Virus record (IMG/VR): IMGVR_UViG_3300034374_009254
Location: 37,259-101,258 of that record
From: a virus
Length of the DNA stretch: 64,000 nucleotides
Direction: 5' to 3' (one strand)
The position numbers were made by a program, and so were the translations under genes. Shown here piece after piece: positions 2,444 to 63,822 of this stretch. The notes below the pieces were generated by a model that saw only the letters and a list, made by a program, of their open reading frames with translations, did not search any database and was not told where the DNA came from. The first letter of the stretch is position 1; the number at the start of each line of letters is the position of its first letter.

Positions 2444-3658
2444 TTAAGGTAGATCAGCTCCATAATACTGAATACTATCTTTGGTGCCATCTTGTGCTGT
2501 AATAAAATACATTCCTGAAAATGTATCTAAATTATAAGTTCCTGCTGAAACATCTTTTCGATATACATTTACCGCACCTTGTCCAGGTATAGCATCAGAA
2601 GAAAGAGTTGCATGGGAAGTATATGTATTTATATCAGATACTGCATTCCAAGAAGAATCGTTTCTTAATAGCCAAATTCTAACCGGGCCATCAAAAGTTA
2701 TAGATCCTGCATCCGCTTGGCCACTATTTACATCTGTAGTACCCCAAGCCCCTTCTAAATATGGAGCAAGCGTAGATAAATTACTTGCATAAGCGACCCA
2801 GTTACCTCCATTTGCAGTTAGTGTTAAGCCGTCTGTTATTTTTGCCATCGGAGCTAGAGAATGATGTTGCCAATTAGTAATATCTGCAACAATAAAGCTC
2901 AAACTGAAGTCTACAAAACGAGTTGTAATTCTTGCTCCATCCGACGCACTTAAACGTGCTCGAAAAGTTCCTGCATTTGCTTTTGTAGTAGTTGGCGTAA
3001 AAGTATATACACCGGTACTTTGATTTATAGTTGTATCTGCACTAAGCTGGGAAGGTCTTGCATTATTCGCAGTTTTATAAGCAATTCCATAAGTAATATC
3101 AAAACCTTCGGGGTCTTGTGCCACCATTGTAACTGTACTTGTAGTTCCATCACTATTTAATTCTTGTGTAGTAGGCGGCTCTGTAGTAATTACAGGACTT
3201 TCATCATTTCCTGCAGCTATTCGATCCCACTCTGTACCATCCCATACATAAAGTGTTTTTGTATCAGAAGTAAAAGCAAAATCTCCTACAGTATTTCCGC
3301 TAGTAGGAACTGCTGCAAAATTTGCATAAGCAGTTACAGAAGAACCATCAGCACCATCAGCACCATCAGCACCATTGGCTCCTGCGGGTCCTGCAGGTCC
3401 TGCGGGTCCAGATACACCTACCCATTGACTTGAAGATCCGTCACTATAGTAAACATAAAGACTACTAACATCTGTACGATACCACAAGTCTCCCGCTTTT
3501 GGATTTAAAGGAGCAGTATCAGAAGAAGTAACTGTCGCGGGCAAAACTCCTACAGCAGTATCCTTCCATACTCCTTTTGTCGAGTTATAGGCATACGTTA
3601 CACCATTTAGTGTAAATGTATCTCCGTTACTCGGACTATCTGGAAAATTATATGCCAT
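2444..3658 (-). CDS. Tail fibre protein with short collagen-like segment and cadherin-like domain
   Basis: A 404-residue protein. It starts with the shared module (MAYNFPDSPSNGDTFTLNG), followed by GDLWYRTDVSSLYVYYSDGSSSQWV, a small domain recurring in this cluster. A short collagen-like run ([19 protein letters not shown]) lies near residues 85-107, and a copy of the domain GDFAFTSDTKTLYVWDGTEWDRI follows. A region with TTEPPTTQELNSDGT and DPEGFDITYG resembles bacterial Ig or cadherin-like repeats; near copies occur in the next two genes. The C-terminus is unrecognised. Fibre or receptor-binding function is inferred from modules and place. Confidence 0.75.
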   Translation of the reverse strand: MAYNFPDSPSNGDTFTLNGVTYAYNSTKGVWKDTAVGVLPATVTSSDTAPLNPKAGDLWYRTDVSSLYVYYSDGSSSQWVGVSGPAGPAGPAGANGADGADGADGSSVTAYANFAAVPTSGNTVGDFAFTSDTKTLYVWDGTEWDRIAAGNDESPVITTEPPTTQELNSDGTTSTVTMVAQDPEGFDITYGIAYKTANNARPSQLSADTTINQSTGVYTFTPTTTKANAGTFRARLSASDGARITTRFVDFSLSFIVADITNWQHHSLAPMAKITDGLTLTANGGNWVAYASNLSTLAPYLEGAWGTTDVNSGQADAGSITFDGPVRIWLLRNDSSWNAVSDINTYTSHATLSSDAIPGQGAVNVYRKDVSAGTYNLDTFSGMYFITAQDGTKDSIQYYGADLP

Positions 3659-45915: not shown

Positions 45916-47220
45916 TTAAAAACTAGTTGAAGAAGTTTCAAAAGAATATAATCCGTATCGTAAAGCATCTGCCATATGAGATGCCATATTATGCCGAGGT
46001 TTTTCTTTTGCTAAGTTAGGATTAGGGTCCCACTGGTATTGATCCAAAGAAGCAATTACTTCTTTGCAGTTCTGATCTACAATAAGTTTATCATTATCCA
46101 CTATACGTTCAACATGAGCAATTCCATCAAGTACGGATTTTTTAGCATTATTAGTACTTATATCATATTGCTGTGCAAAGTCAAATCGAGTTTGCTGAGC
46201 GGCAGAATCTATAAATATAAAATCAATGTTCCACTTATGCTGTAAACGAGAAATTTCTGCTGCATGCTGCTCTGTTGTTCTTTCACTGTTCATGTACTCA
46301 TCAAGTACGTAATATGTTTCTGTTTCCCAATCATATCCAATTACACAAAAAGCAGTAGGGTCTCTGTACCCTACGTCAAGCCCTGCAATAATTTCCATCC
46401 GAGACGTGTCAAGCTCTTCTAGATTTGCGATACACTCTTCGTGATTGAAATTCCATATCTGGCCTTCATAAGTATTAAAGTCGGCTTCATATTCTTGCTT
46501 AAACTCAGCTTCGGACATACTTTTTCGAGCTTCCGCAATATCCGTTTCAGACATTCTCGGATTATCTCTATAAGTTGCTCGTATTGAGGCCCATTCGGAA
46601 AATTCATCACTAAATCCTCTGTGAAAGAACTTTGCAAACCAATTGTTCTTTCCTCTCGGTGTAGATATAAAAATTGCCTTAGAATTGTCTTTGTCAAGAG
46701 TAGGACGAAGTGCTACATTAAAAGCGTCTTCTCCATCTGCTAGAGCCGCTTCGTCAAAAATAATTAGATCATAAGAACGACCAACACAAGAATCTACTTG
46801 GTTTACAGAACCCATACGAATTGTAGATCCGTTAGTAAGTTCAATAACTTTATCTTTTGCGTTGTCTTTTGCTACCTCTAAATCAAAATGTTTAATTAGT
46901 TGTCTTTGTAAGTCGAAAGAAATCTGAGACAAGGAGTAATTGGGAGACATGATTAGAATATTAGATCCAGGTACTAAAGAAACTAGTTGCCCGATAATAT
47001 TCGCTATATATGTTTTTCCTTGTCGCCTTGAAATTGAAGCAACAACGAAGCGATACTTATTATTATTTATCGCATTTATAATTGCCATCTGAGAGGGCAG
47101 AGGACTTACGCCGAGTAGTTCAAGATATTGAGCTACTGGTAGTTTGAGAAATCTTGTCTCAGATTGTGAATCGACTAATTTTTCTGAAATTATATCAGCT
47201 CGGCTAACTTCTACTGCCAT
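45916..47220 (-). CDS. terL: Terminase large subunit
   Basis: A 434-residue packaging ATPase-nuclease. Walker A is SRRQGKT at 64-70. Walker B is YDLIIFDEAAL near residue 155, followed by the coupling motif AIFISTPRGKNNWFAKFF. The nuclease acidic motif GLDVGYRDPTAF lies near 275, with later acidic residues at FIDSAAQQ and near the C-terminus (HMADALRYGLY). It pumps DNA into the prohead through the portal. Its stop is followed by a promoter for HNH and portal; its start lies 3 bases after the o-spanin stop. Confidence 0.95.
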   Translation of the reverse strand: MAVEVSRADIISEKLVDSQSETRFLKLPVAQYLELLGVSPLPSQMAIINAINNNKYRFVVASISRRQGKTYIANIIGQLVSLVPGSNILIMSPNYSLSQISFDLQRQLIKHFDLEVAKDNAKDKVIELTNGSTIRMGSVNQVDSCVGRSYDLIIFDEAALADGEDAFNVALRPTLDKDNSKAIFISTPRGKNNWFAKFFHRGFSDEFSEWASIRATYRDNPRMSETDIAEARKSMSEAEFKQEYEADFNTYEGQIWNFNHEECIANLEELDTSRMEIIAGLDVGYRDPTAFCVIGYDWETETYYVLDEYMNSERTTEQHAAEISRLQHKWNIDFIFIDSAAQQTRFDFAQQYDISTNNAKKSVLDGIAHVERIVDNDKLIVDQNCKEVIASLDQYQWDPNPNLAKEKPRHNMASHMADALRYGLYSFETSSTSF

Positions 47221-62886: not shown

Positions 62887-63033
62887 TTGATAACTACTAC
62901 TGAATTTGCAATTTTTATTTTTTGCCTTCTTGGGTGTGGAATACACTCTTGGAAGTTAGGAAAATCACAAGGAGTAGAGGCTACCGTCCAGTACATGATT
63001 GATACGGGAGTACTCGAAGTAGAAGATGAATAA
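62887..63033 (+). CDS. Small membrane protein, TTG start
   Basis: A 48-residue protein starting at TTG after AAGGAGATCCTC. The membrane helix EFAIFIFCLLGCGIHSWKLG is followed by KSQGVEATVQYMIDTGVLEV and an acidic end. The pattern of a membrane anchor plus GVEATVQYMIDTGVLEVE recurs in marine phages, role unknown to me. It is the first gene of the tmRNA operon and ends directly before the tmRNA acceptor piece. Confidence 0.65.
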   Translation: MITTTEFAIFIFCLLGCGIHSWKLGKSQGVEATVQYMIDTGVLEVEDE

Positions 63034-63091
63034 TTCGTTGAAGTAATAAACTAACGGTTGGACTCGGGTGCAATTCCCGACAGCTCCACCA
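63034..63091 (+). ncRNA. ssrA: Permuted tmRNA, acceptor (3') piece
   Basis: The segment ends with a T-arm (stem TCGGG 63064-63068 with CCCGA 63076-63080, loop TGCAATT), then CAGCTCC (63081-63087) and ACCA. CAGCTCC pairs with GGGGCTG at 63244-63250, the same acceptor stem as E. coli tmRNA. ATAAACTA (63047-63054) can pair with TAGACTTAT of the coding piece as part of helix P2. It lies upstream of the coding piece, so the gene is circularly permuted. The exact 5' end is unknown. Confidence 0.8.
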
Positions 63092-63104
63092 TAAGGAGTT
63101 TTAT

Positions 63105-63276
63105 AATGCGTATACCAATGAAAGGTGGTGATGAGTTTGATGGACTGTCTCGACGTTCTAAAAGATTTTTTCTTTGGAGAGCCGGAGAAAGAAAGAGCCT
63201 CAAGAGAAAGTACAATAAACGACGCAGAAAGACTTTTTATGATGGGGCTGATACAGACTCGACAGGCGTACAGTAG
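63105..63276 (+). CDS. Small basic protein inside the tmRNA intervening segment
   Basis: A 56-residue protein (MRIPMKGGDEFDGLSRRSKR, WRAGERKSLKRKYNKRRRKT). TAAGGAG lies 7 bases before the ATG. The MKGGDE..DALTR...RPGERK..K..YN.R pattern is one I recall from small proteins of several phages. It starts 14 bases after the tmRNA CCA end and its last 33 bases overlap the 5' end of the tmRNA coding piece. Processing of the tmRNA and translation of this gene therefore compete for the same RNA. Confidence 0.75.
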
Positions 63277-63415
63277 ACTTATGGAGAATTCGTGCGGAAG
63301 CTACGTTAACGCAACAAACTTAATAAATGCCAACGACGACATTTATGCACTTGCTGCCTAATTAAAGGTAAGCGGGGTGGGAGGAGCCTGGCAACAGAAA
63401 TCCTCAAGCTACTCC
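63244..63415 (+). ncRNA. ssrA: Permuted tmRNA, coding (5') piece with tag reading frame
   Basis: It begins GGGGCTGATACAGACTCGAC, matching the tmRNA 5' end (acceptor strand, then the conserved GAnUCGACagG loop). A tag frame starts at about 63311 (GCA) and encodes ATNLINANDDIYALAA then TAA (63359-63361). The end ANDDIYALAA closely resembles the E. coli tag ANDENYALAA. After the stop, 63374-63385 pairs with 63401-63415 (GGGGTGG-GAGGA with TCCTC...CTACTCC), a likely end structure. It tags stalled proteins and frees ribosomes. Confidence 0.85.
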
Positions 63416-63429
63416 AAAGGAGGAGAAAT

Positions 63430-63822
63430 ATGAAGAAACTTTTAGCGGGGTTTGCACTTCTCGGCCTTTCAGCCGGAATCGGTGCAGAAACTGTAATTAA
63501 CTATGATGATGGCTCTACCTACACTTTGGAAGAGAATCAAGAAATTTATATCAGTACGCCGAACAGTGCTTTATTTAAGCGGCAGCTCATGAAAAATAAG
63601 GACACTTTTTTTCGTGTTCAAGAGCCTTGGACAAAGCGTGACTATGTGCCTGATCCAGACGGAACTGATACTATGGTCGTAGGCTCACACGAATGGTGTA
63701 AAGCATACAAGCCTTGGCACGAAGGTCTTACGTTTAACATGATTTCATGGCAACGTGCTTGTGATACCAACAACGATGGTGTGTATGATGAGGACGACGA
63801 CAGATGGCCTGACGAAGGCTAA
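63430..63822 (+). CDS. Exported protein with C-terminal EF-hand-like segment
   Basis: A 130-residue protein. The signal peptide is MKKLLAGFALLGLSAGIGAE, with cleavage likely after GIGA. The mature part has YDDGSTYTLEENQEIYISTP, two Cys (HEWCKAYKPW, RACDTN) and ends DTNNDGVYDEDDDRWPDEG, an EF-hand-like calcium loop (D-x-N-x-D-G-x-x-D). GGAGGAG precedes the ATG. Periplasmic; function unknown. It is followed by a terminator. Confidence 0.75.
   Translation: MKKLLAGFALLGLSAGIGAETVINYDDGSTYTLEENQEIYISTPNSALFKRQLMKNKDTFFRVQEPWTKRDYVPDPDGTDTMVVGSHEWCKAYKPWHEGLTFNMISWQRACDTNNDGVYDEDDDRWPDEG

What the first reader, a model, noticed from the sequence alone, without database searches (positions are those of the whole stretch)
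63034..63415. Phage-encoded circularly permuted tmRNA with a protein gene in its intervening segment
The acceptor half (T-arm, CAGCTCC, ACCA at 63088-63091) lies upstream of the coding half (GGGGCTG at 63244 with GACTCGACAGG, and a tag frame ending ANDDIYALAA then stop). The two halves restore the standard GGGGCUG/CAGCUCC acceptor stem only if the gene is permuted. The 152-base spacer carries a good ribosome site and a 56-residue gene (63105-63276) whose end overlaps the tmRNA 5' end. Two-piece tmRNAs are known in Alphaproteobacteria and a few other lineages. A phage copy whose spacer is a protein gene would be a new arrangement as far as I know.
Basis: partly seen in the sequence, partly recalled or inferred. 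Interest (0 to 1): 0.9.

Follow-up and report, generated by a model that had tools for sequence, protein, structure and literature searches.

The report
Small phage gene inside split tmRNA
This phage carries a tmRNA (the RNA that rescues stuck ribosomes) whose two halves are encoded in swapped order, and the stretch between the halves, which mature tmRNA lacks, holds a real small protein gene; many other viral sequences do the same with unrelated genes, so this stretch looks like an exchangeable gene slot that databases have overlooked.

Summary
ARAGORN and Rfam (RF04321 117 bits, RF01849 93 bits) find a permuted tmRNA: acceptor half ends in CCA at 63091, coding half starts at 63244, tag ANDDIYALAA, 152-nt intervening segment (IVS). 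Phage permuted tmRNAs are already known. A protein gene in the IVS seems unreported, and it is not peculiar to this phage: among viral IVSs of at least 96 nt I found 15 unrelated small-gene families under protein-level selection, and an unannotated ORF in cultured phage Melnitz. Mature tmRNAs 92-100% identical carry unrelated IVS genes, so the IVS behaves as an exchangeable slot, closed by a covarying ~11-bp helix that here buries the ribosome-binding site. Of 385 alphaproteobacterial genomes, one has an IVS this long, with no gene. Best reading: one transcript is first an mRNA, then a tmRNA precursor. About half of these genes would lose their stop codon on processing. Processing and translation are untested.

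The parts
63032..63091 (+). tmRNA acceptor piece (T-arm 63064-63080, acceptor 3' strand CAGCUCC 63081-63087, discriminator plus CCA 63088-63091); the alpha model and ARAGORN extend it upstream to 62982-62999
63092..63243 (+). intervening segment (IVS), 152 nt, absent from mature tmRNA
   Evidence: between CCA and the first G of the coding piece; same 150-164 nt length in relatives
63092..63102 (+). 5' strand of the IVS-closing helix (UAAGGAGUUUU), contains the Shine-Dalgarno
   Evidence: fold z -3.5; covariation over 129 IVSs
63229..63239 (+). 3' strand of the IVS-closing helix (AAGACUUUUUA)
63093..63098 (+). Shine-Dalgarno AAGGAG of the nested gene, 7 nt before its ATG
63106..63276 (+). nested protein gene, 56 aa MRIPMKGGDEFDGLSRRSKRFFLWRAGERKSLKRKYNKRRRKTFYDGADTDSTGVQ, pI about 11, phrog_16066-like; last 10 codons and stop lie in the tmRNA 5' piece
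   Evidence: pN/pS 0.27 in frame vs 1.44 and 1.60; PHROG hit E 1.7e-4; nested and free-standing homologues
63244..63408 (+). tmRNA coding piece (acceptor 5' strand GGGGCUG 63244-63250, 3' end to 63408 by RF01849, 63452 by ARAGORN)
63329..63361 (+). tag reading frame ANDDIYALAA and stop
62887..63033 (+). upstream 48-aa ORF with one hydrophobic stretch, ending at the start of the acceptor piece (probable operon neighbour)
   Evidence: no family match above cut-off
63430..63822 (+). downstream 130-aa ORF with signal-peptide-like N-terminus (probable operon neighbour)
   Evidence: no family match

Best explanation
The locus is a functional-looking, phage-encoded permuted (two-piece) tmRNA gene whose intervening segment holds a small protein gene. 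The IVS serves as a cargo slot: because it is removed from mature tmRNA it can carry, lose or exchange small genes, provided each cargo brings its own closing helix. The transcript is used twice. While it is being made, ribosomes can start at the Shine-Dalgarno just after CCA and make the 56-aa basic protein. Once the end of the IVS is transcribed, the closing helix forms, buries that Shine-Dalgarno and brings the two acceptor strands together, and host tRNA-processing enzymes (RNase P at 63243/63244; 3' processing at 63091) release the two tmRNA pieces. Shown computationally: permuted tmRNA, protein-level selection on the ORF, recurrence with unrelated genes, cargo exchange, covarying closing helix. 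Inferred: order of events, mutual exclusion of translation and processing, the enzymes involved, and the protein's function (possibly RNA or translation related, since it is strongly basic and some free copies sit in phage tRNA clusters).
For: tmRNA. Same nesting in relatives with compensatory acceptor change. Selection on the ORF: mean pN/pS 0.27 vs 1.44 and 1.60. Free-standing homologues elsewhere, so it is a gene family and not IVS sequence that happens to be open. Generality: 420 ARAGORN-confirmed viral permuted tmRNAs with a defined IVS; 25 IVS ORF clusters among IVSs of 96 nt or more, 15 of them (103 loci) with pN/pS below 0.5 and below both other frames. Cultured phage Melnitz carries an unannotated IVS ORF. 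Cargo exchange: L381 and L408 have identical mature tmRNA over 235 nt but unrelated IVSs and ORFs; L111 (this gene family) and L157 (another) are 92% identical; L167 (gene) and L700 (71-nt IVS, no gene) 99.6%. Closing helix: 8.95 of 10 positions pair on average vs at most 6.90 in 200 re-pairings, with position +5:-9 found as GU, GC, CG, UA and AU; precursor fold z -3.47. Bacterial control: 183 of 385 alphaproteobacterial genomes have a 15-45 nt IVS; 2 match a 138-168 nt spacer, one of them apparently not a tmRNA and the other repetitive without an ORF.
Against: No RNA-seq, proteomics or processing data. No SmpB in the 101-kb record, so it must use the host's, or the record is incomplete. The closing helix also occurs in IVSs without a gene and in some bacterial IVSs, so it was not evolved for the gene. 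In the largest family (42 members) the Shine-Dalgarno lies at about +33, outside the helix, so burial of the start is not general. Pairs of sequences in the selection and helix tests are not independent.
Confidence: 0.72

Rival explanations
1. Self-limiting nonstop switch. Processing of the precursor cuts the nested mRNA before its stop codon, so ribosomes still on the IVS reach a nonstop end and are rescued by the same tmRNA, which tags the product for degradation. The protein would accumulate only when tmRNA maturation or activity is insufficient, like ArfA.
For: In this family all 8 sampled nested copies run past the IVS end without a stop; 8 of 15 selected families and 69 of 149 IVS ORFs of 30 codons or more do so. 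The arfA mRNA of E. [quoted passage not shown]
Against: The other 7 selected families stop inside the IVS, so it is not a general property. Only about 4-5 codons separate the conserved core from the IVS end in this family, so lack of a stop there is not surprising. The protein has no ArfA match in Pfam.
Confidence: 0.25
2. The tmRNA is a decaying remnant and only the small gene matters; the IVS is just where the gene happens to sit.
For: The contig has no SmpB; near relatives of the window tmRNA are few.
Against: Acceptor stem, G3-U70, T-arm, CCA, tag frame ending in LAA and stop are all intact here and in diverged relatives with compensatory changes. L381 and L408 show the opposite pattern: identical tmRNA, different genes.
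Confidence: 0.06
3. The IVS ORF is not translated; the IVS is only a structural spacer and the open frame is a by-product.
For: Many shorter viral IVSs (51-95 nt) have the helix but no ORF.
Against: Protein-level purifying selection in 15 families, Shine-Dalgarno at the right distance, homologues outside tmRNA genes.
Confidence: 0.04
4. The IVS cargo is a selfish mobile element comparable to intron-encoded homing endonucleases.
For: Near-identical tmRNAs with and without cargo, and with different cargo.
Against: Products are 30-75 aa; the 10 other families tested have no match above a Pfam cut-off and no PHROG match; no endonuclease-like signature; exchange can be explained by ordinary phage recombination across the conserved tmRNA halves.
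Confidence: 0.08

Closest known systems
Permuted (two-piece) tmRNA, Rfam RF04321 / RF01849
   Same: Gene order, acceptor stem, T-arm, encoded CCA, tag frame, Rfam scores above gathering
   Different: IVS of 152 nt with a selected protein gene; IVSs in the bacterial genomes sampled are mostly far shorter and the few long ones lack a clear gene. PMC11915505 mentions a tRNA gene in one IVS and a repeat in another; I found no mention of a protein gene
ssrA of Methylophilales phage Melnitz (MZ577097, PMC9004378)
   Same: Phage permuted tmRNA; its 142-nt IVS also holds a 54-aa ORF that runs into the tmRNA 5' piece
   Different: Unrelated gene; the record annotates only the tmRNA there, and the paper passages read discuss a glutamine riboswitch but not this ORF
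Group I intron tmRNA genes with homing endonuclease genes
   Same: Protein gene inside a segment removed from mature tmRNA
   Different: Intron splicing in the T-loop versus IVS excision at the acceptor ends; endonucleases versus many unrelated tiny proteins
ArfA regulation
   Same: Possible loss of the stop codon by RNA processing, which would couple expression to tmRNA activity
   Different: No sequence relation found; regulation here is untested
phrog_16066 small basic phage proteins
   Same: Core G-G-D-E-Y-D and K-R-K-Y-N-K-R conserved
   Different: Function unknown; free-standing copies end in their own tail, nested copies end in a tail encoded by tmRNA sequence

Membership tests
Permuted tmRNA (RF04321, RF01849) | Acceptor half upstream of coding half; covariance score above gathering | tested here: met
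   117.3 vs 47 bits and 92.7 vs 50 bits; ARAGORN permuted call
Permuted tmRNA (RF04321, RF01849) | Acceptor stem with G3-U70, T-arm, CCA end | tested here: met
   sequence 63064-63091 and 63244-63250; compensatory acceptor in L017
Permuted tmRNA (RF04321, RF01849) | Tag frame ending in a degradation signal | tested here: met
   ANDDIYALAA stop; relatives ANDDVYTLAA, ANDDIYQLAA
Permuted tmRNA (RF04321, RF01849) | Cleavage of the precursor into two pieces | not testable with these tools
   needs RNA end mapping
Permuted tmRNA (RF04321, RF01849) | Works with SmpB | tested here: inconclusive
   no SmpB in the own record; host SmpB could serve
phrog_16066 | Profile match | tested here: met
   E 1.7e-4, profile positions 10-42 of 53; free-standing relatives match the same profile
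ArfA ribosome rescue factor | Pfam family match | tested here: not met
   no Pfam family up to E 1
ArfA ribosome rescue factor | Nonstop mRNA and repression by tmRNA | not testable with these tools
   ORF stop lies 3' of the predicted processing site; no expression data
Homing endonuclease cargo | Endonuclease domain in the inserted gene | tested here: not met
   this gene: no Pfam match up to E 1, only PHROG 16066 of unknown function; 10 other IVS families: no match above a Pfam cut-off, no PHROG match

The most novel reading that the evidence does not exclude
Phage permuted tmRNA genes are dual-use transcripts: each first serves as mRNA for an exchangeable small gene in the IVS, and its maturation into tmRNA ends that translation (burying the start site and, in about half of the families, cutting off the stop codon so that late products are tagged by the very tmRNA released). 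Production of the small protein is thus wired to tmRNA maturation.
Probability: 0.25. Interest if true: 0.88.

Novelty: new variant of a known kind. Interest (0 to 1): 0.78.

Why it matters
tmRNA is among the best-catalogued bacterial RNAs, and the spacer of its permuted form has been treated as discarded sequence. If viruses repeatedly use it as a slot for small genes under selection, there is an overlooked set of phage small proteins hidden under tmRNA annotations (as in Melnitz), a new example of one transcript acting as both mRNA and stable-RNA precursor, and a possible reason why the permuted form suits marine phages. It also gives a testable link between expression of a phage protein and ribosome rescue.

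Tried and rejected
Close cultured relatives of the window tmRNA: only a 36-base match to Brevundimonas phage Bajun. Function of the nested protein: no Pfam match above cut-off, no PDB sequence match, AlphaFold2 model of moderate confidence (pLDDT 77, two helices) with no Foldseek hit in PDB. General linkage of the family to tRNA clusters: some free copies lie within tRNA clusters (L020, L055, L056, L063, L074) but most have no tRNA within 1.5 kb, so only suggestive. A second long frame that ends in the tag and runs upstream through the IVS (63125-63361) is interrupted in L003 and L007, and the non-ORF frames show pN/pS above 1, so I treat it as chance. Short hairpin between CUCC of the acceptor and GGAG of the Shine-Dalgarno: no better than shuffles (z about -0.5 or weaker). 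Helix as a gene-specific feature: rejected, it occurs in most viral IVSs over 50 nt regardless of ORF. The founding papers on two-piece tmRNA (PMC16621, PMC516066) are not held, so prior description of the helix or of IVS ORFs there cannot be excluded.

Full report
The observation. Reading the sequence, ARAGORN and Rfam agree that 62982/62999 to 63408/63452 is a permuted tmRNA. The acceptor half ends in CAGCUCC-A-CCA at 63091, the coding half starts with GGGGCUG at 63244, and the tag is ANDDIYALAA. RF04321 scores 117.3 bits against a gathering score of 47, and RF01849 92.7 against 50. The spacer of 152 nt is exact. The ORF begins at 63106, one base later than stated. It has 46 codons in the IVS and 10 codons plus TAG in the tmRNA 5' piece, with AAGGAG at 63093-63098.

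The ORF is a gene. A search of viral contigs with the 56-aa protein found 8 loci. Six have the complete nested layout with intact permuted tmRNA, one is cut by a contig end inside it, and one (L009) encodes a free-standing 48-aa homologue with no tmRNA. A profile search added a more diverged nested type (L017/L018, tag ANDDNYYGDYALAA, acceptor GGGGGCG/CGCCUCC, a compensatory change) and many free-standing relatives. Over 7 distinct nested copies, mean pN/pS of the IVS part is 0.27 in the ORF frame and 1.44 and 1.60 in the other two. The family matches phrog_16066 (unknown function), is strongly basic and was found in only 4 contigs of a genome collection, all from metagenome-assembled genomes. 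In L027/L028 the same gene sits just upstream of a permuted tmRNA with a very short IVS.

It is one case of a wider pattern. ARAGORN confirmed 420 as permuted with a definable IVS. ORFs longer than expected from shuffled sequence were found in 0, 2, 22, 54 and 44% of unique IVSs in the length classes 5-50, 51-95, 96-137, 138-168 and 169-205 nt. Clustering the ORFs of IVSs of 96 nt or more gave 25 clusters of two or more. Fifteen of these (103 loci) have informative divergence with pN/pS below 0.5 and below both other frames. They include small membrane proteins (42 members, MKNPLV...), MKYKIVVK..., VDNKLKEL..., MNWDWHWI... and others; ten tested had no match above a Pfam cut-off and no PHROG match. 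The cultured phage Melnitz, whose permuted ssrA is published (PMC9004378), has a 54-aa ORF in its 142-nt IVS; its record annotates only the tmRNA there. An ORF of the same cluster is in L106.

The IVS behaves as a slot. Comparing mature tmRNA parts, L381 and L408 are identical over 235 nt but carry unrelated IVSs with different ORFs. L111 (the window's gene family) and L157 (another gene) are 92.3% identical with IVSs that do not align. L167 (gene) and L700 (71 nt, no gene) are 99.6% identical. In these examples each cargo has its own complementary IVS ends.

The closing helix. Over 129 unique IVSs of 138-199 nt, IVS position +1 pairs with -5, +2 with -6 and so on for about 11 pairs. The fraction paired at the first nine positions is 0.78-0.95. 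The sum over ten positions is 8.95 against a maximum of 6.90 in 200 random re-pairings of 5' and 3' ends; +5:-9 occurs as GU, GC, CG, UA and AU. UGAU precedes the first G in most. In the window the helix is UAAGGAGUUUU (63092-63102) with AAGACUUUUUA (63229-63239); the whole precursor folds with z -3.47 and contains this helix. The 5' strand contains the Shine-Dalgarno. The helix is present in most viral IVSs longer than 50 nt with or without an ORF, so it is a general precursor feature; some bacterial IVSs show it too by eye, while 15 sampled bacterial IVSs had 0-6 pairs in this register.

Bacterial control. In 385 alphaproteobacterial genomes, 183 match the 15-45 nt spacer pattern and 2 the 138-168 nt pattern. 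One of the two (G041) does not look like a tmRNA; the other (G120) has a repeat-rich IVS with no ORF. A covariance search of 289 genomes gave mostly spans consistent with IVSs under 100 nt (not all matches were listed). This control covers one class only.

Mechanism. The best-supported model is a transcript used twice: translation from the start site just after CCA while the RNA is being made, then closure of the helix, hiding of the start site, and excision of the IVS by tRNA-processing enzymes. PMC3985003 names RNase P and tRNase Z as probable processors of permuted precursors. Everything after 'the ORF is under selection and the helix covaries' is inference. In 8 of the 15 families, including this one, the ORF runs into the tmRNA 5' piece, so processing would remove its stop codon and make the remaining message a substrate for the tmRNA just released. 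The other 7 stop inside the IVS, so this cannot be the general reason for the arrangement, but it may be a real switch in those that have it. [quoted passage not shown] no sequence relation was found.

What is known. Phage permuted tmRNAs are known: PMC9004378 lists 53 two-piece tmRNAs in phage genomes. PMC11915505 reports one IVS with a tRNA gene and one with a repetitive element, and homing endonuclease genes in group I introns of tmRNA genes, but no IVS protein genes in the passages found. Searches of open-access papers found no description of protein genes in the IVS. The library lacks the founding two-piece tmRNA papers, so the claim of novelty is limited to what could be searched.

Limits. 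Most long-IVS loci are predicted viral contigs; Melnitz is the only cultured confirmation found. The pattern scans require CTCCACCA and GGGG..TCGAC and were capped. Sequence pairs in the selection and pairing statistics share ancestry. No expression data exist here.

Noticed in passing
L339 (MZ577097.1 45512-47025), IVS ORF at record 46096-46257: Cultured Methylophilales phage Melnitz has an unannotated 54-aa ORF under its tmRNA annotation.
   Followed up: yes
L027 and L028, 1501-1919: A free-standing homologue of the nested gene lies directly upstream of a permuted tmRNA with a minimal IVS (tag ANDDYYEEYALAA), a likely alternative arrangement of the same pair.
   Followed up: partly
L020, L055, L056, L063, L074: Free-standing homologues of the nested protein lie inside or beside phage tRNA gene clusters.
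   Followed up: partly
L340 (Rhodobacter phage RcXuper OP186293.1, about 3300-3540): Apparent permuted tmRNA with a 109-nt IVS, without annotation in the stretch fetched and without a clear IVS gene.
   Followed up: partly
L333 (G001:C55:122809-123109): A Hyphomicrobiaceae MAG carries two permuted tmRNA genes; the second has a 115-nt IVS with a 31-aa ORF and might be of phage origin.
   Followed up: no
viral and bacterial IVSs, last four bases: UGAU directly before the first G of the coding piece is nearly invariant in long viral IVSs and could pair with parts of ACCA, making an almost continuous helix of about 22 bp over the processing sites; why this is kept is unexplained.
   Followed up: partly
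window 45916-47220: The phage terminase is closest to T5-like phages (50.8% identity to Pectobacterium phage My1), so probably a T5-like siphovirus of an alphaproteobacterial host.
   Followed up: partly
L342 (G120:C33) and L341 (G111:C7): Rare long IVSs in alphaproteobacterial genomes, made of repeat-like sequence rather than genes.
   Followed up: partly
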